From the IMG/VR virus record IMGVR_UViG_3300027985_001328, positions 1-41,178 of that record: 41,178 bases of DNA. One strand, 5' to 3'. Source of the DNA: a virus. Below, piece by piece: positions 2,000 to 34,767 of the stretch; the first letter of the stretch is position 1; every line of letters starts with the position of its first letter. Under the pieces are notes generated by a model. It saw only the letters and a program-made list of their open reading frames with translations. It searched no databases and was not told the DNA's origin. Position numbers and translations under genes: made by a program.

Positions 2000-2362
2000 C
2001 TACTCTCCAACCGCCTTGGGCTGGTAGGCCATTTCCTCCTCCACGAAGTCGACGCTCTGACGCAGGGAAGCGATGCGGTAGAGTTTCCCGGAACAGGCCC
2101 CCAGTATCTCGGCTAGGGCAAGGGCTTCATGGGCGGCAAGGCCGCGCTGCATCTTCCCCTCGCGCTCCAGCCGCTCGATGGTGGCGGTCACGGCGGACAG
2201 GTCCAGGCGCAATTCGGCGTGGCACAGGTCGGCGAGGGCCTCGATGCCGGAGACGATGGAAGAGGCGCGCATGGCCGAGACGGATGCGCGGAACTGCTCT
2301 TGCTGGATAAACTGGAGCGGTCCGGGCGTGTGAGGCCGAGTGGGTTTGATCTCGCCGCTCAT
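2000..2362 (-). CDS. Unknown early phage protein
   Basis: A 120-residue, mostly helical protein with alternating charged and hydrophobic residues. A likely coiled coil lies around residues 50-75 ('DLSAVTATIERLEREGKM'). The ATG at 2362 overlaps the stop of the CI-type regulator (TGATG), and the gene ends 3 bases before the next gene's start. It is therefore embedded in the leftward operon and probably translated by coupling. The longer frame upstream to 2650 is antisense-like and lies over the regulator gene. No domain recognised. Confidence 0.7.
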   Translation of the reverse strand: MSGEIKPTRPHTPGPLQFIQQEQFRASVSAMRASSIVSGIEALADLCHAELRLDLSAVTATIERLEREGKMQRGLAAHEALALAEILGACSGKLYRIASLRQSVDFVEEEMAYQPKAVGE

Positions 2363-2811
2363 GACAGGGGCCTCGCTCCGGTGGTGTCGGGCTGAATGGT
2401 CTCGGTGGGGATGGCATATCCTGCGAGGGCGTTGCGCTCTCCGATGACGAAGGCGGCATCCACGCCAGCCGCGCGGCAGCGCTCGACGACCATAGCGGCC
2501 AAGTGCTCGGTGCTCATGGTCAAGGGATTGGGAGTGGGCGGAGCGGCGAGATTTCCCTCGGAGTCGGCCGGGGCAGTGTAGCGTGCGCCCTGACCGGAGA
2601 GCATCCACACGGGGTTGATGCCGCGCTTGAAGAGCAGGGTGAGAAGCCAAGCGGCGGGAACCTGGCCACGGCGCTTGGCGTCCGAGATGGACGACTGGCG
2701 AATGCCGAGCTCCTCGGCGAGTTGAATCTGCGTGCGCAGTCCTGTGGATTCGCGCACACGGTCCATGAAGTCGTTGAATTTTACGGCGCTGAGATCGTAT
2801 GCATTCTGCAT
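2359..2811 (-). CDS. CI-type helix-turn-helix phage regulator without peptidase domain
   Basis: A 150-residue protein whose N-terminal 65 residues match the phage CI repressor helix-turn-helix family. The pattern 'TQIQLAEELGIRQSSISDAK' is followed by 'WLLTLLFKRGINPVWMLSGQG', the usual family ending. The C-terminal half has no S24 (LexA-like) peptidase signature, so RecA-driven self-cleavage is not expected. The start at 2811 (GAGGAGAGG site) is preferred over an upstream frame extending through the operators. Two TTATGCAA/TTGCATAA operators lie 99-150 bases upstream of the start, so the gene is probably controlled by one of the local regulators, perhaps itself. First gene of the leftward early operon. 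Confidence 0.85.
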   Translation of the reverse strand: MQNAYDLSAVKFNDFMDRVRESTGLRTQIQLAEELGIRQSSISDAKRRGQVPAAWLLTLLFKRGINPVWMLSGQGARYTAPADSEGNLAAPPTPNPLTMSTEHLAAMVVERCRAAGVDAAFVIGERNALAGYAIPTETIQPDTTGARPLS

Positions 2812-2909
2812 GATCCTCTCCTCGGTGTCGTTTGGACCGCGCGGCGCACTTCGCGGGGGAGTGACGTGGCGCCGCGCGGTCCGTGACAGGGTGTCCTTGA
2901 GGCGAGGAT

Positions 2910-2926
2910 TAGTGCAATTTGCATAA
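2910..2926. promoter_or_regulatory. Operator copy 1 (imperfect)
   Basis: Left half TAGTGCAA, central T, right half TTGCATAA. The right half matches the perfect copies elsewhere; the left half differs at two bases. Its centre (2918) is 33 bases from the centre of copy 2 (2951), about three helical turns, so proteins bound at both would face the same side of the DNA. It lies in the leader of the leftward CI-type regulator operon. Confidence 0.75.
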
Positions 2927-2940
2927 TCGCGCAAGAAAAA

Positions 2941-2961
2941 TTTTATGCAATTTGCATAAAA
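2941..2961. promoter_or_regulatory. Operator copy 2 (perfect 21-bp palindrome)
   Basis: A perfect odd-length palindrome centred on T2951; its core is TTATGCAATTTGCATAA (2943-2959) with two more paired bases on each side. On the minus strand it contains a TTGCAT that could act as a -35 element, 16 bases from GATTAT, a fair -10. A bound regulator would then block this leftward promoter. On the minus strand the palindrome is also followed by TTTTT, so it might partly terminate transcripts arriving from the nuclease gene; that is speculative. Confidence 0.85.
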
Positions 2962-3093: not shown

Positions 3094-3591
3094 TCACTTG
3101 GGGGGCTGCTTCTTTCTGAACTGAGCCGGGGTAAGTTTGAGTCCGCCCTGTGCCCAAAAACCCGCTTTGGCTGTCTTGGCCTCTGTCTCTGCCATGTGCA
3201 GTCGCTTGAGGTATTTGCAATTTGGGGTGTAGCAGACAGGGATGGCCAGGCCTGCGCGGACAAGTTGCTCGTTGAACATGGCGCCGTTGCGCCAGGCGTA
3301 GGCCAGCGTGCGGTGGTAGCGGTCGGTGCGCTCCTTGTCATACTCAAGGGAGAGGCCTCCTTGATCGCACCACGTCTCAGCGAATGCCTTTGCCTCCTGG
3401 CCCCATTCCTGGCCATGCTCAGGGGCATCCACGCCGATCAGGCGGATTTTTAGAACATCTCCTCCCGCGATTTTCACCACAAGAGAATCCCCGTCTATGG
3501 CCCGAATGCATGTGGCGTCATCGGCCGCGGCTGCAGGGGGGGATGCCAGGAGCAGAAGAACGGCGACGGAGATGAGGGCTGGGCGGATCAC
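3094..3591 (-). CDS. Secreted staphylococcal-type nuclease (SNase-like)
   Basis: A 165-residue protein with an N-terminal signal peptide (hydrophobic core residues 8-18, then ASPPAAAA) and a complete SNase domain. Catalytic residues align with the Staphylococcus aureus enzyme: Asp33/Asp35 in 'AIDGDS' (Asp19/Asp21), Arg50 in 'KIRLIGVDAPE' (Arg35), Glu58 (Glu43, same spacing of 8) and Arg94 in 'DRYHRTLAY' (Arg87). It should cut DNA or RNA with calcium in the periplasm or outside the cell. It starts with GTG overlapping the stop of the upstream membrane-protein gene (GTGA), so the two are coupled. It is the last gene of the three-gene leftward operon headed by the 3840..4211 regulator, suggesting expression in the lysogen. 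Confidence 0.92.
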   Translation of the reverse strand: MIRPALISVAVLLLLASPPAAAADDATCIRAIDGDSLVVKIAGGDVLKIRLIGVDAPEHGQEWGQEAKAFAETWCDQGGLSLEYDKERTDRYHRTLAYAWRNGAMFNEQLVRAGLAIPVCYTPNCKYLKRLHMAETEAKTAKAGFWAQGGLKLTPAQFRKKQPPK

Positions 3592-3830
3592 TTCTTCGCT
3601 CCTGCCTCTCCGATGCTCACGCGCGCGGCCAGATCGGAGGCGTCTGCCGCGGCTGTGGCGTTCTTGCGGATCTCCTCAAGATAGGAAAGGGACACCCGCT
3701 GCCTGTCCTCGACCATGTCCAGGCGCTCGCGCAAAATTCCGAACTCCTGGTGCTGCACAAAGAGGACGGCGGCCACGATGGCCGTGAGCAAGACATTGAG
3801 GACGACGAGCAGTAGCGCGTGGCGGCCCAT
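3588..3830 (-). CDS. Small single-pass membrane protein with coiled coil
   Basis: 80 residues: one N-terminal transmembrane helix (about residues 6-25, 'LLLVVLNVLLTAIVAAVLFV') and then a charged helical tail likely to form a coiled coil ('ILRERLDMVEDRQ'). It is preceded by TAAGGAGAATAT, a strong ribosome-binding site. It lies 9 bases after the regulator's stop and overlaps the nuclease start. Its steady pairing with a secreted nuclease suggests the two act at the envelope together, but that is inference from position. Confidence 0.75.
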   Translation of the reverse strand: MGRHALLLVVLNVLLTAIVAAVLFVQHQEFGILRERLDMVEDRQRVSLSYLEEIRKNATAAADASDLAARVSIGEAGAKK

Positions 3831-3839
3831 ATATTCTCC

Positions 3840-4211
3840 TTAACCCTTCCTGGCCTCATACGTGGCCGATCCATCTGCGGCAGAGAGTGCCCGTTGCTCC
3901 CCTGACAGGGGAAGACTCTTCGCCTCTGACTTCCGCTGCAACTCCAGGACCTGTGCCACGCGGAAGCACAAGGTCGCCGCATCCATTCCCAGGACCGAGG
4001 CGAGCAGCACGGCATCCGAGACGGTCACGCTCTGCGGCTTTCCCGTCTCCTTTCTCGGCATGCGCATCTGTTTTAGGCGGTCGATGGACTTCTGGCCAGG
4101 GCCGAAGGCGCTTTGCGCCAAAGTGGAGTAATTTAGCCCCTTTTCCTTCATCAAGGAAATGACTTGACGGATCATTTCTCTTTCAAATTCATATGCATAA
4201 ACTGTATTCAT
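3840..4211 (-). CDS. Helix-turn-helix regulator heading the nuclease operon
   Basis: A 123-residue protein whose middle reads like an XRE/Cro-type DNA-binding domain ('MKEKGLNYSTLAQSA', a linker, then 'VTVSDAVLLASVLGMDA'). The C-terminus (from about residue 90) is polar and possibly disordered. It has no peptidase domain. Transcribed divergently from the gene at 4298, with two operators between them; one operator overlaps the inferred start of this gene's own transcript, so self-repression is likely. It is the best lysogeny-repressor candidate by position, but the CI-type protein at 2359..2811 is an alternative. Start ATG 4211 has AAGGT upstream. Confidence 0.7.
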   Translation of the reverse strand: MNTVYAYEFEREMIRQVISLMKEKGLNYSTLAQSAFGPGQKSIDRLKQMRMPRKETGKPQSVTVSDAVLLASVLGMDAATLCFRVAQVLELQRKSEAKSLPLSGEQRALSAADGSATYEARKG

Positions 4212-4220
4212 GTGATACCT

Positions 4221-4237
4221 TTATGCTTTTTGCATAT
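4221..4237. promoter_or_regulatory. Operator copy 3 (imperfect)
   Basis: Left half TTATGCTT, central T, right half TTGCATAT: three differences from the perfect 16-base consensus. It covers the inferred start point of the leftward regulator transcript, just inside the possible -10 at 4236-4241. Confidence 0.8.
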
Positions 4238-4241
4238 TTTA
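4236..4241 (-). promoter_or_regulatory. Possible -10 of the leftward regulator/nuclease operon
   Basis: Read on the minus strand this is TAAAAT, five of six bases of the -10 consensus, 24 bases upstream of the ATG at 4211. No good -35 is visible at 16-18 bases, so the promoter may be weak or activator-dependent. Confidence 0.4.
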
Positions 4242-4260
4242 TCGAGGTGGAAAATTGCCC

Positions 4261-4289
4261 TTGACCGCATTATGCAATTTGCATAAACC
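4261..4289 (+). promoter_or_regulatory. Rightward promoter with an embedded operator
   Basis: TTGACC (4261-4266) is a good -35 and TAAACC (4284-4289) a modest -10, 17 bases apart. The perfect operator at 4270-4286 fills the spacer, a classic repressible layout. The expected start point is about 4296-4298, at or next to the ATG of the 70-residue gene, so its message may be leaderless. Confidence 0.6.
4270..4286. promoter_or_regulatory. Operator copy 4 (perfect)
   Basis: TTATGCAATTTGCATAA, identical to the core of copy 2 some 1.3 kb away. It sits between the -35 and -10 of the rightward promoter and 49 bases (centre to centre) from copy 3. The same protein therefore probably silences the rightward early operon and the leftward operon that begins at 2811. 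Confidence 0.88.
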
Positions 4290-4297
4290 CCTATTTC

Positions 4298-4510
4298 ATG
4301 GACCTTAAAAACAAATTCGAGGAAATGCGGAAACTGTACGGCAGCCACGGTGCCGCCGGGCAGGAACTCGGCTATTCAGACGCATCGGCCTACTCCAGGG
4401 CCCGCCGCCAGGCGTTGTCCGGAGAGGCCGATTTCCCCGCGCACAAGCTGCGGTTGATGGATTTCCTGTTGCGCGAGGGAAAACGCTGCGTCACGGCCAA
4501 GGCCAGTTAA
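4298..4510 (+). CDS. Small Cro-like DNA-binding protein, possibly leaderless
   Basis: A 70-residue basic protein: 'FEEMRKLYGSHGAAGQELGY' followed by 'SDASAYSRARRQA' has the spacing of a helix-turn-helix. It is the first gene to the right of the switch region, where Cro-type antirepressors usually sit. No Shine-Dalgarno is present; the operator ends 11 bases before the ATG and the promoter predicts a transcript starting within about two bases of it, as in lambda cI made from PRM. The protein family is not firmly recognised. Confidence 0.65.
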   Translation: MDLKNKFEEMRKLYGSHGAAGQELGYSDASAYSRARRQALSGEADFPAHKLRLMDFLLREGKRCVTAKAS

Positions 4511-4880: not shown

Positions 4881-5912
4881 ATGGGCCAATACGGGGTTAT
4901 TCACGACCGATTTTGGACATGGGCCAGGACAGAAGGCTTGTCGCTCGGCGCGACGTGTCTTGGGGCCTATCTCCTTTCGTGCCCGCATCGGAGCATTCTC
5001 GGGGCGTATCGCCTCCCTCTCGCCTATGTGTGCGATGATTTAGGGAACAGTTCCGAAACTGTTTCTAAATGGTTCAAGGAACTGTCACCAAACCCGGAGA
5101 GCGCGTTCGCGCTTTTGTGCGAGAAAACCTCCTTCGTCTTCCTCCCGAAGTATCTCAAGTGGAATCAGCCCCAGAATCCGAATCAGCGGAAGGCGATAGC
5201 CCGAGCCGCCCTCGATCTACCGGATAAGTTTTGTCATTACAGACTATTGTTAGGTTCACTTGAGGCTTATTGTCAACCGTTCGACAACAGTTTCGAAACA
5301 GTTTTGGAAACCATTCGGGAACGGTCGTCGAATCAGTATCAATATCAGTACCATAAACAGAAGGAGGAATCTCCTGACGGAGATTCTTGCTCGGACTTCC
5401 CGCCTAACGGCGGGAGTCACGAGCAGTTCGTCGCCGTGGATAGTGTCGACGAGGTTTCCCCTAGGAAGGAGAAAAGGCTCGGCACGTTCAAAGGGGGAGA
5501 TGACTGCGCGATCGTGGCACTTCCCTTGGCAGGTGGCAGAGAGTTTATCCTGACCGCATCCTGGGCTGCAGAAAAGGCCCCGATTTATCCCGGCGTGGAT
5601 GTGGTGCGCGAGGCCATGCAGATGCGTGAATGGCTGCTGGCCAACACAAAGAAGCGCAAGACCGACCGTGGCATACTCGGATTTGTCACTGGTTGGCTAA
5701 AGCGGGCGCAGGATAGGGCAGGGCCGCGGATTCCATCCGTTCCAGTGCCGCGCGTCGACCGCCTGCCCTTACAGGACAAGGCTATCCAGTATTGCTCCCA
5801 GCACGGCGTCGACTATCTGAACAGGTTCTGCATCCATCACGGCCTGGATCTCGCCCAATATCATCCCGTGGTCAGTGCCGCGCTTGGCGCTGGCGCCGGA
5901 GGTGCCCCATGA
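4881..5912 (+). CDS. Phage replication initiator-like protein
   Basis: A 343-residue protein with the architecture of phage replication proteins. The N-terminal winged-helix-like region (about 1-130, with 'YVCDDLGNSSETVSKWFKEL') is followed by a polar linker (about 155-205) and a C-terminal domain containing 'RGILGFVTGWLKRAQDR', a signature of phage and plasmid replication proteins. It would bind the origin and recruit the host helicase. The gene contains iteron-like repeats (5046-5063 and 5286-5303), so the origin may lie inside it, as in lambda O. Start ATG 4881 has GAGGAG. The next gene overlaps by ATGA and may be its partner. Confidence 0.75.
   Translation: MGQYGVIHDRFWTWARTEGLSLGATCLGAYLLSCPHRSILGAYRLPLAYVCDDLGNSSETVSKWFKELSPNPESAFALLCEKTSFVFLPKYLKWNQPQNPNQRKAIARAALDLPDKFCHYRLLLGSLEAYCQPFDNSFETVLETIRERSSNQYQYQYHKQKEESPDGDSCSDFPPNGGSHEQFVAVDSVDEVSPRKEKRLGTFKGGDDCAIVALPLAGGREFILTASWAAEKAPIYPGVDVVREAMQMREWLLANTKKRKTDRGILGFVTGWLKRAQDRAGPRIPSVPVPRVDRLPLQDKAIQYCSQHGVDYLNRFCIHHGLDLAQYHPVVSAALGAGAGGAP
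5046..5303. repeat. Iteron-like repeats inside the replication gene, candidate origin
   Basis: AACAGTTCCGAAACTGTT (5046-5063) and AACAGTTTCGAAACAGTT (5286-5303) match at 16 of 18 positions, and the first is itself a near-perfect palindrome. Related pieces follow each: GGTTCAAGGAACTG after the first and GGAAACCATTCGGGAACGG after the second. Together they encode the repeated peptide pattern SSETV/NSFETV, so protein repetition is the alternative explanation. Confidence 0.45.
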
Positions 5913-7901: not shown

Positions 7902-8243
7902 ATGAAAGTATTTGAACCTCTGTGCCGCGCGATGACGTTCCTTTTCGGGACTTCTGCGTCAAGGGGGTTTCCGAACGGAAAGCCTGGACTCTGCAAGCAA
8001 GATACCACGCCACGTCACGAGTTTCCGAACAGACTGACCAGATTGGTATGGTTTTCAGGTGCTCGGAAACTAACCGTTTTCGAGTCGTATTACGCTTCGA
8101 CGCACGGATACGTCGCCTTCGCTGGTCTGGTTTTGCGCTGGAGAAACTGGATGGAGGCGGCTCCTTTTTTGGAATGGTTCGGCCGTGAGGAGTGGCGCTC
8201 ATTCCTCTGGTGGGATTTCAGGTTTGAGAGGAGGGTATTTTGA
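7902..8243 (+). CDS. Uncertain gene upstream of the short tyrosine recombinase
   Basis: A 113-residue frame, Trp/Phe/Arg-rich near the end ('WFGREEWRSFLWWDFRFERR'), with a mediocre AGGTGG ribosome site; its stop overlaps the next start (TGATG). A second frame (7922..8188, GTG start) also reads plausibly but lacks a ribosome site. The DNA is less GC-rich than its surroundings and contains three GTTTCCGAAC-type boxes. It may be a horizontally acquired gene or partly a non-coding control region. I favour coding in the first frame only weakly. Confidence 0.4.
   Translation: MKVFEPLCRAMTFLFGTSASRGFPNGKPGLCKQDTTPRHEFPNRLTRLVWFSGARKLTVFESYYASTHGYVAFAGLVLRWRNWMEAAPFLEWFGREEWRSFLWWDFRFERRVF
7967..8070. 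repeat. GTTTCCGAAC boxes upstream of the recombinase
   Basis: GTTTCCGAAC occurs exactly at 7967-7976 and 8021-8030, and as its complement with one change (GTTTCCGAGC on the minus strand) at 8061-8070. The first copy extends into a hyphenated palindrome, TTTCCG-AA-CGGAAA. They may be binding sites for the neighbouring recombinase or further origin-type sites; related sequence occurs in the replication gene. Confidence 0.4.
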
Positions 8244-8905
8244 TGCGAGGATGCCGCCCTTTGGCCAGGACGGAGCGCGCCGCATTCCTTCGCGCGATAC
8301 GCGGCCCGTATGAACTGCGCGACCGTGCGCTGGTCATGCTCGGGATGTGCACGGGGTTTCGCGTCTCCGAGATGCTGGCGCTACGCATGCCCGATCTGTT
8401 CCAGAACGGGCGCATGGTGCAGCGCGTGACCGTGGCCAGGCGCTCGATGAAGGGGAAGACCTCCTCACGAACCGTCCTTCTGCACCCTGCGGCGCGCGAA
8501 GCTCTCCGGGCGTGGGTCATGGAGATGATCCGCGCGGGCATGTTCACGCCTGACATGCCGCTGTTCGTGAGCCGCCGGGGTGACGCCGAAGGACGGCCGC
8601 AATCCATCAACCGGAAACAGGCGTGGCGCATCCTTGAGAAGGCCTTCGCCCGCGCCGGCCTTGAGGGACGTCTCGGGACGCACAGTCTACGCAAGACGTT
8701 CGCGGCCGAGCATTACGAGAAGCTCAAGACCCTGGCCGCGCGCGGAAAGCCCGTGGACGTGCTGCGCACGATGCAGAAACTGCTCGCGCACGTCTCCATC
8801 GAAAGTACCATGTCCTACCTGGAAGGAATCGACTCCGCGTTCGTCGACGAGATGATCCTCGGCATGGACGTCGGAGTGCCTGTCCAGACTCCGAGGGCGG
8901 CATGA
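8243..8905 (+). CDS. Short tyrosine recombinase (catalytic domain only)
   Basis: A 220-residue protein with the complete tyrosine recombinase set: Arg40 ('CTGFRVSEML'), a beta-hairpin Lys ('SMKGKTSSR'), His147-x-x-Arg150 ('HSLRKTF'), His183 ('LLAHVS') and nucleophile Tyr192 nine residues later. It lacks the N-terminal core-binding (SAM-like) domain of XerC/D and phage integrases, so DNA grip must differ or need a partner. ATG 8243 follows AGGAGGG. This is the phage's second tyrosine recombinase; the conventional one is 33411..34595. It could resolve multimers, invert a segment or act on host dif-like sites; none is demonstrable. Confidence 0.9.
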   Translation: MRGCRPLARTERAAFLRAIRGPYELRDRALVMLGMCTGFRVSEMLALRMPDLFQNGRMVQRVTVARRSMKGKTSSRTVLLHPAAREALRAWVMEMIRAGMFTPDMPLFVSRRGDAEGRPQSINRKQAWRILEKAFARAGLEGRLGTHSLRKTFAAEHYEKLKTLAARGKPVDVLRTMQKLLAHVSIESTMSYLEGIDSAFVDEMILGMDVGVPVQTPRAA

Positions 8906-33410: not shown

Positions 33411-34595
33411 CTATAACTCACCTCTGAGCCCGTCGAGGTAGTCCGCCCAGGCCTGCATCATGTGGCGCCTCTCGGCCAAGTGTTCCGCGTAGTTGTAGGC
33501 AGCTTTCACCTTGTTGCCCTCGACGTGGGCGAGTTGCCTCTCGATTGCATCCGGGGTCCATCCGAGTTCGTGAAGTCGCGTCGAGGCCATGCTGCGGAAT
33601 CCGTGTCCTGTCATCTCGTCTTTGCTGTATCCCATGCGGCGAAGCGCCGCGGTCACGGTGTTCTCGCTCATGGGTCGCGTTGAGCTCCTCATGGAGGGGA
33701 AGACGTAACGTCCAGACCCGGTCAAGGGCTGCACTTCGCGCAGGATGGCCACGGCTTGCCTAGAAAGCGGGACGATGTGCGGTCGTTCGACCTTCATCTT
33801 CTCGGCCGGGATGCGCCATTCGGCCGCGTCAAAGTCGATTTCCGACCATTCTGCATGCCGAAGCTCGCCGGGCCGCGTGAACACAAGCGGGGCAAGACGG
33901 AGCGCGCACCTGACGACGAAAGTGCCCTTGTAGGAATGAAGGGAGCGGAGCAGGGGGCCGATGTCCTGCGGGTCGGTGACGCTCGCGTGGTGCGATTTCT
34001 TCGTGGGGGGAAGCGCTCCTCGGAGGTCGGCGGCCGGGTCGCGCATGGCCAGGCCACAAGCAATCGCATAGCGCATGACTTGGCCGATTACGCCGCGAAC
34101 GCGGTGGGCCGTCTCCAGCGCGCCACGCTCTTCTATCCTCCGGAGAAGGGCGAGGATAGCCGGGGCCTCGATGCTGGAAACCGGCGTCGATCCGATCCAG
34201 GGGAAGGCGTTTTTCTCAAGGCGGTCCAATACCGTATTGGCATGGCTGGCGGTCCATCCTGTACACTGTCGCTTGTGCCAGTCTTTGGCCACGGACTCGA
34301 AGGTGGCCGCGGCCTCTGTTGCAGATTTCTTGTCCGACTTGCGCGTATCGGCTGGATCTTCGCCAAGAGCAATCATCTTTCGTGCCGCGCTGCGCTTCTC
34401 GCGTGCATCGGCGAGGGATACCTCGGGAAAGACCCCGAGCGCCAGGCGCTTCTCTTTCCCTTGGTGGCGGTACTTGAGGCGCCAGTATTTCCCGCCAGCG
34501 GGGAAAATCTCCAGATACATACCCCCGCCGTCGTGCAGCCGATAGGTCTTTTCGCGGGGCTTCGCGTTCTTGATCTCGGTCACGGTAAGCGGCAT
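33411..34595 (-). CDS. int: P4-type tyrosine integrase (DUF4102 N-terminus)
   Basis: A 394-residue integrase: an N-terminal DUF4102 arm-binding domain ('MPLTVTEIKNAKPREKTYRL', 'LALGVFPEVSLADAREKR'), a core-binding domain (about 110-190) and the catalytic domain with Arg in 'FTRPGELRHAEW', HGFR (HxxR), His in 'QLAHVEG' and Tyr in 'AAYNYAEHL'. It recombines attP with a host tRNA-like attB. ATG 34595 has GGAGG; the open frame upstream to 35303 crosses the att region and is not coding. Convergent with the late operon, 31 bases away. Confidence 0.95.
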   Translation of the reverse strand: MPLTVTEIKNAKPREKTYRLHDGGGMYLEIFPAGGKYWRLKYRHQGKEKRLALGVFPEVSLADAREKRSAARKMIALGEDPADTRKSDKKSATEAAATFESVAKDWHKRQCTGWTASHANTVLDRLEKNAFPWIGSTPVSSIEAPAILALLRRIEERGALETAHRVRGVIGQVMRYAIACGLAMRDPAADLRGALPPTKKSHHASVTDPQDIGPLLRSLHSYKGTFVVRCALRLAPLVFTRPGELRHAEWSEIDFDAAEWRIPAEKMKVERPHIVPLSRQAVAILREVQPLTGSGRYVFPSMRSSTRPMSENTVTAALRRMGYSKDEMTGHGFRSMASTRLHELGWTPDAIERQLAHVEGNKVKAAYNYAEHLAERRHMMQAWADYLDGLRGEL

Positions 34596-34767
34596 GGTCT
34601 CTTGCCTCCGATCCCCCTTGGGGGCATATCCATGAACATCCCGGCCCGCCACCCTGGGGGCACATTTCGTCGAAGGAGGCCTCCCTGTGCCTCCATGCCC
34701 CCGCATGTGCCCCCAATTTTTTCGGCTGTCAATGGACAGTATCGGACAAACTAGACATGCAGAAACT

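What the first reader, a model, noticed from the sequence alone, without database searches (positions are those of the whole stretch)
3094..4211. Regulator-linked membrane protein plus secreted nuclease: candidate superinfection-exclusion cassette
The operon regulator, 80-residue membrane protein, signal-peptide SNase is transcribed from the switch region in the direction expected during lysogeny. The nuclease keeps all catalytic residues and is exported. A periplasmic nuclease held near the membrane by its coupled partner could destroy incoming phage DNA; T7-type ejection crosses that very space.
Basis: inference. Interest (0 to 1): 0.62.

Follow-up and report, generated by a model that had tools for sequence, protein, structure and literature searches.

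The report
Exported nuclease beside phage lysogeny switch
A temperate phage carries, next to its on/off switch, a small operon for a membrane protein and an exported DNA-cutting enzyme; the same arrangement recurs in many unrelated temperate phages, which suggests that resident phages use it to destroy foreign DNA entering the host, but neither the target DNA nor the activity has been tested.

Summary
On the minus strand lie a 123-aa putative regulator (no family), an 80-aa protein with one strong hydrophobic segment, and a staphylococcal-nuclease homologue (SNase) with a signal-like N-terminus and the catalytic residues. They form a tight operon, on the same strand as the cI repressor and divergent from the cro-like/replication side. 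Four copies of one palindrome, absent elsewhere in the 41 kb, flank the cassette: two upstream of cI, two between the regulator and cro.

The 80-aa protein and regulator have no detectable relatives, so that exact pair cannot be shown to be conserved. The arrangement does recur. In 38 of 79 IMG/VR phage SNase loci (10 of 26 clusters by majority, 12 by any member), a CI-like repressor lies within three genes upstream on the same strand, against 8% of other genes. In 16 loci a membrane or exported protein sits between repressor and SNase. Some upstream partners match 'immunity to superinfection' or 'Sie-like' families.

Superinfection exclusion is therefore plausible but unproven, and a nuclease attacking T7-type DNA in transit is its weakest step. 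Blocking natural transformation, reported for the prophage SNase YokF, is a serious alternative. Verdict: a real lysogeny-module accessory cassette, a new variant of a known kind.

The parts
3094..3591 (-). exported staphylococcal-nuclease (SNase) homologue, 165 aa, GTG start, signal-like N-terminus
   Evidence: PF00565 2.7e-22; PDB thermonuclease 2e-22; catalytic residues invariant; AF2/Foldseek match to SNase structures
3588..3830 (-). 80-aa single-span membrane protein with hydrophilic tail
   Evidence: KD hydropathy 2.97; no Pfam/PHROG/PADLOC match; no tblastn match in phages; AAGGAG ribosome site; overlaps SNase start by 4 bases
3840..4211 (-). 123-aa first gene of the operon, in the place usually held by a phage repressor; HTH-like helix order predicted weakly
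   Evidence: no family match; AF2 pLDDT 63; Foldseek best E 0.37 to 434 repressor domain, not significant; no relatives found
4221..4237 (.). operator-like palindrome O3 (ATATGCAAAAAGCATAA on the minus strand), overlaps the putative -10/+1 of the cassette
   Evidence: position relative to the promoter by inspection
4270..4286 (.). operator-like palindrome O4 (TTATGCAAATTGCATAA), overlaps the putative cro promoter and lies about 49 nt upstream of the putative cassette start
   Evidence: 7 strand matches in all, 0.01 expected
2910..2926 (.). operator-like palindrome O1 upstream of cI
2943..2959 (.). operator-like palindrome O2 upstream of cI
2359..2814 (-). CI-type repressor (Phage_CI_repr HTH)
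   Evidence: PF07022 3.5e-8; phrog_4 and phrog_2328
4298..4510 (+). 70-aa cro-position gene, first gene of the divergent (lytic/replication) side; no ribosome site seen
   Evidence: position and sequence only; no family match
4881..5912 (+). DnaD-like helicase loader, marks the replication side of the switch
   Evidence: phrog_1701 5.6e-14

Best explanation
The cassette is a lysogeny-module accessory operon that makes the host envelope hostile to incoming DNA. The small membrane protein sits in the inner membrane and hinders DNA translocation; the SNase is exported to the periplasm and degrades DNA left exposed there. The substrate may be transforming DNA or the DNA of a superinfecting phage whose transfer has been blocked, comparable to T4 Imm plus breakdown of trapped DNA. 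Shown here: gene content, catalytic residues, operon structure, strand shared with cI, operator-like palindromes, and recurrence of the order repressor-(membrane protein)-exported SNase in other phages. Inferred: export, topology, lysogenic expression, cooperation of the two proteins, and the substrate.
For: SNase fold and active site intact. Tight operon. CI-like repressor within 3 genes upstream of the SNase, same strand, in 38/79 IMG/VR loci versus 8.1% of other genes in the same loci; with one representative per 60%-identity cluster, 8.8 of 26 versus 2.4 expected, with 8 or more in 0.035% of null draws. 78/79 of those SNases have a hydrophobic N-terminus. When the gene immediately upstream is not CI, it has a TM-like segment in 23/52 loci versus 12.8% background. 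16 loci are CI - membrane/exported protein - SNase, e.g. L100 (CI, 77-aa membrane protein, SNase, overlapping genes) and L116; L115 has the same order with a PF07022 regulator, 112-aa membrane protein and SNase. Immediate upstream partners include PF14373/phrog_1039 'immunity to superinfection' (L106, 1.1e-17 and 7.8e-22) and phrog_8545 'superinfection exclusion Sie-like' (L160, L124). Named phages: Curvibacter TJ1, Moraxella Mcat8 and Microcystis Mae-JY22 have the SNase downstream of a repressor or repressor-position gene. Precedents: SPbeta YokF and CJIE1 Dns lower transformation (PMC4774983); T4 superinfecting DNA is trapped in the periplasm (PMC12642591).
Against: No transcript or activity data. 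The 80-aa protein and the regulator have no detectable relatives, so this exact pair is not shown to be conserved. O3 overlaps the putative start of the cassette, so CI may repress it in a lysogen. The membrane partners in other phages appear unrelated to each other and to this one. Only one contig pairs the SNase with an Imm-domain protein; of 80 loci found with that protein only one other carries any SNase, on the other strand. The Sie-like cases (L124, L160) have no CI upstream in the DNA held. The host is unknown; a periplasm is inferred from the phage type.
Confidence: 0.4

Rival explanations
1. Anti-transformation device only. The exported SNase destroys naked DNA before uptake and so protects the prophage from being replaced by homologous recombination; the membrane protein is incidental or helps export/anchoring. 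Injected phage DNA is not affected.
For: Established for mobile-element DNases, including the SNase-family prophage enzyme YokF (transformation down tenfold), C. jejuni CJIE1 Dns (a thousandfold) and V. cholerae IdeA (PMC4774983). SNase relatives are also common on plasmids (2118 records). Phage DNA crosses the periplasm in a conduit (PMC10883804).
Against: Does not explain why membrane proteins, some of superinfection-immunity families, are enriched directly upstream. Competence of the host is unknown.
Confidence: 0.27
2. Superinfection exclusion exactly: the SNase, held at the membrane by the 80-aa protein, cuts phage DNA during ejection through the periplasm.
For: A membrane-bound nuclease that cuts phage DNA during injection exists (SNIPE, PMC13190303). 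Lysogeny-module position recurs.
Against: SNIPE's nuclease faces the cytoplasm and is one polypeptide with its membrane segment. T7/P22-type DNA is enclosed in an ejection tube. There is no evidence of contact between the 80-aa protein and SNase.
Confidence: 0.1
3. Lytic or lysis-phase role: the operon is switched on at induction (CI released from O3) and the exported SNase digests host DNA around lysing cells, easing virion release.
For: O3 overlaps the putative start of the cassette, as expected of a repressed promoter.
Against: Same strand as cI and divergent from the replication and structural genes. In many other phages the SNase follows the repressor itself, which is expressed in lysogens.
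Confidence: 0.12
4. Ecological conversion: a secreted nuclease for using extracellular DNA as a nutrient or for loosening biofilm; no role in DNA entry.
For: Secreted SNases act on extracellular DNA and biofilm in other bacteria (papers listed; otherwise own knowledge).
Against: Does not explain the recurrent coupling with membrane proteins or with immunity repressors.
Confidence: 0.11

Closest known systems
SPbeta prophage YokF (exported SNase-family nuclease of Bacillus subtilis)
   Same: Prophage-encoded, exported, SNase domain (about 36% identical); reduces transformation (PMC4774983)
   Different: Lipoprotein with extra low-complexity and C-terminal parts; in SPbeta it is not next to a repressor and has no small membrane gene directly upstream on its strand
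SNIPE (DUF4041 + GIY-YIG membrane nuclease)
   Same: Idea of a nuclease at the membrane that spares the resident genome by location (PMC13190303)
   Different: Different nuclease fold; single polypeptide; nuclease faces the cytoplasm; no sequence relation found here
T4 Imm/Sp and P22 SieA superinfection exclusion
   Same: Phage-encoded membrane proteins that block DNA entry; blocked T4 DNA ends up in the periplasm (PMC12642591)
   Different: Act without a phage-encoded periplasmic nuclease; the 80-aa protein shows no match to Imm or to PHROG exclusion families
lambda PRM operon cI-rexA-rexB
   Same: Exclusion genes downstream of the immunity repressor next to divergent cro (own knowledge)
   Different: Here the first gene is not recognisable as CI; the recognisable cI lies downstream behind its own operator pair; SNase and membrane protein stand in the place of rexAB
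Curvibacter phage TJ1, Moraxella phage Mcat8, Microcystis phage Mae-JY22
   Same: SNase with signal-like N-terminus downstream of the repressor or repressor-position gene, same strand; in TJ1 an in-frame upstream start gives the intervening gene an N-terminal membrane segment
   Different: No recognised similarity in the membrane partner or first gene; Mcat8 has no gene between; the Mae-JY22 172-aa repressor-position gene was not tested against family libraries

Membership tests
Staphylococcal nuclease (PF00565) | OB-fold SNase domain above the curated cut-off | tested here: met
   79.7 bits vs cut-off 21; AF2 model matches SNase structures
Staphylococcal nuclease (PF00565) | catalytic Asp21, Arg35, Asp40, Glu43, Arg87 | tested here: met
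   D35, R50, D55, E58, R94 invariant in alignment A4
Staphylococcal nuclease (PF00565) | exported by a signal peptide | tested here: inconclusive
   n-h-c pattern and hydropathy fit, but no signal-peptide predictor and no experiment
Superinfection exclusion systems (Imm, SieA, Sp) | sequence match of the membrane protein to a known exclusion family | tested here: not met
   80-aa protein matches no Pfam, PHROG or PADLOC model; partners in other loci do (L106, L160, L124)
Superinfection exclusion systems (Imm, SieA, Sp) | expressed in the lysogen or early in infection | tested here: inconclusive
   strand and position fit; O3 overlap allows repression
[quoted passage not shown]
   needs phage challenge
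SNIPE | DUF4041 and GIY-YIG nuclease on a membrane-anchored protein | tested here: not met
   nuclease is PF00565; no DUF4041 or GIY-YIG match
Mobile-element anti-transformation DNases | exported DNase encoded by an integrated element | tested here: met
   SNase with signal-like N-terminus on a phage with integrase; export itself is inferred
Mobile-element anti-transformation DNases | lowers transformation of the host | not testable with these tools
   needs transformation assay; host unknown
Cro/C1-type repressor (for the 123-aa protein) | HTH match by profile or fold | tested here: inconclusive
   no profile match; weak model, non-significant Foldseek match to 434 repressor

The most novel reading that the evidence does not exclude
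Temperate phages widely carry a two-part envelope DNA barrier in the repressor operon: an interchangeable small membrane protein that stalls DNA transfer at the inner membrane, and an exported SNase that destroys the stalled DNA, a self-contained version of T4 Imm plus periplasmic breakdown.
Probability: 0.2. Interest if true: 0.75.

Novelty: new variant of a known kind. Interest (0 to 1): 0.5.

Why it matters
If true, many prophages guard their host's periplasm with an exported nuclease coupled to membrane proteins, adding a nuclease step to entry exclusion and linking phage immunity with control of natural transformation. It also gives a search rule (repressor - small membrane gene - exported SNase) for finding new exclusion proteins, many of which have no recognisable family.

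Tried and rejected
Direct relatives of the cassette: the SNase query in viral contigs gave none and in genome contigs only L002; regulator none; 80-aa protein none in phages. TerL relatives (80 loci, L003-L082) carry no SNase in the DNA held, so the cassette does not look like a fixed part of that lineage. Portal relatives in 398 genomes of the phylum of L002's genome were only 27-32% identical, so no host was identified. An alignment spanning SNases too distant gave no usable search pattern. The automatic promoter/terminator scan found nothing at the switch, so promoter placement is by eye. A general Imm-SNase pairing was rejected: only L106 (and L173, the same contig) has it in tandem. No family in the libraries searched recognises the regulator. 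I found no paper describing the arrangement; the library is open-access only, so this is not proof of novelty. The host-nuclease (endonuclease I) part of the T4 breakdown analogy is from my own knowledge.

Full report
What the window is. The window is a whole IMG/VR record of 41,178 bases. It is a temperate phage with T7-like structural genes (portal phrog_332, tail protein phrog_376, internal virion protein phrog_418, terminase), a P4-type integrase, an AlpA-like regulator and a DnaD-like helicase loader. No host could be assigned.

The observation. The three genes exist as described. The SNase (3094-3591, minus) matches PF00565 (2.7e-22) and S. aureus thermonuclease (2e-22). The residues equivalent to D21, R35, D40, E43 and R87 are present and invariant among 22 relatives, and the AF2 model superposes on solved SNases. 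Its N-terminus is signal-like. The 80-aa protein (3588-3830) has a single strong hydrophobic segment and no relatives found. The 123-aa protein (3840-4211) matches no family; a low-confidence model has an HTH-like helix order only. Good ribosome sites and a 4-base overlap make this a tight operon.

The switch. A CI-type repressor (2359-2814, PF07022) lies downstream on the same strand. One palindrome, TTATGCAAATTGCATAA or close to it, occurs at 2910, 2943, 4221 and 4270 and nowhere else; 7 strand matches were found against 0.01 expected. The cassette therefore sits between cI and the cro-position gene, with an operator-like pair on each side, as if inserted into an immunity region. By inspection, a -10-like TAAAAT at 4241-4236 would start transcription inside O3, while O4 overlaps the cro promoter and lies about 49 nt upstream of that start. 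This resembles lambda OR, where a strong site next to cro can activate PRM and a weak site on PRM can repress it (own knowledge). Lysogenic expression is therefore plausible, but repression by CI is equally allowed, and the automatic promoter scan is silent.

With an alignment of Gram-negative phage and plasmid SNases (A2), 80 SNase loci were fetched from IMG/VR; 79 had a readable ORF, in 26 clusters at 60% identity. Using an iteratively built CI profile, 38/79 have a CI-like protein within three genes upstream on the same strand and within 1.5 kb, versus 8.1% of other genes in the same loci. With one representative per cluster the mean is 8.8 of 26 against 2.4 (null of 8 or more in 0.035% of draws); 10 of 24 clusters still show it in at least one member when the clusters of the TJ1 and Mcat8 seeds are left out. 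In contiguous cases, 13 are CI directly followed by SNase, 16 have an intervening membrane or exported protein, and 6 another protein. Where the gene immediately upstream is not CI, 23/52 carry a TM-like segment against 12.8% background. Examples closest to the window are L100, L115 and L116. Partners with names are an Imm-domain protein in L106 (PF14373 1.1e-17; phrog_1039 7.8e-22) and phrog_8545 'Sie-like' proteins in L160 and L124. Named phages TJ1, Mcat8 and Mae-JY22 share the order repressor or repressor-position gene, then SNase; TJ1's intervening gene gains an N-terminal membrane segment if an upstream in-frame start is used. The more distant Gram-positive phages AP45 and A403 also have the nuclease downstream of the repressor.

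Limits of that test. ORFs were called as longest ORFs and TM segments by hydropathy. PHROG names are inherited annotations. The loci were found with seeds of which three are phage SNases in such a setting. The Imm pairing is a single contig: 80 loci found with that protein contained only one other SNase, on the opposite strand. The Sie-like cases lack CI upstream. The window's own membrane protein and regulator have no relatives, so the claim is about a recurring arrangement and not a conserved pair. The window's nearest SNase relative, L002, overlaps a downstream gene whose product has membrane-like segments by eye.

Mechanism. Two kinds of precedent bear on it. Mobile-element DNases, including the prophage SNase YokF, lower natural transformation (PMC4774983). 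Small phage membrane proteins block DNA entry (SieA, PMC10883804; Imm), and in T4 the blocked DNA is trapped in the periplasm (PMC12642591). A free nuclease attacking DNA in a T7- or P22-type ejection tube is the weakest version, because the tube shields the DNA. SNIPE shows that cutting during injection is possible, but with a cytoplasm-facing, single-chain nuclease that associates with the tape-measure protein (PMC13190303). I therefore favour a division of labour: the membrane protein hinders transfer and the SNase destroys DNA exposed in the periplasm, with transformation-only as the nearest rival.

Verdict. Observation confirmed; interpretation partly supported; new variant of a known kind.

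Noticed in passing
window 2834-2882 (-), leader of cI: Perfect 14-bp GC-rich inverted repeat in the cI leader; the 86-nt leader folds at -40.7 kcal/mol, z = -3.5. Could control cI expression.
   Followed up: partly
window 2910-2959 and 4221-4286: Two pairs of the same operator-like palindrome flank the 1.3-kb cassette, which looks like an insertion between cI and cro with operator duplication.
   Followed up: partly
window 4270-4300 (+): The cro-position gene at 4298 has no visible ribosome site and may be translated from a leaderless transcript.
   Followed up: no
window 8240-8905 (+): A second tyrosine-recombinase-like ORF (phrog_216, 3.2e-33) in addition to the P4-type integrase at 33411-34643 (-).
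   Followed up: no
L083 3340-3970 (Curvibacter phage TJ1): The 154-aa gene annotated between CI and SNase has an in-frame upstream start that adds an N-terminal membrane segment; the GenBank start may be wrong.
   Followed up: partly
window 3094-3591: PADLOC candidate model PDLC01096 (C3a212, SNc+LTD) matches the SNase domain at 3.6e-16; no system was assigned.
   Followed up: no
L106 5165-6414: Repressor locus with lipoprotein-like, Imm-domain and SNase genes in a row; a good candidate for testing an Imm-nuclease pair.
   Followed up: partly
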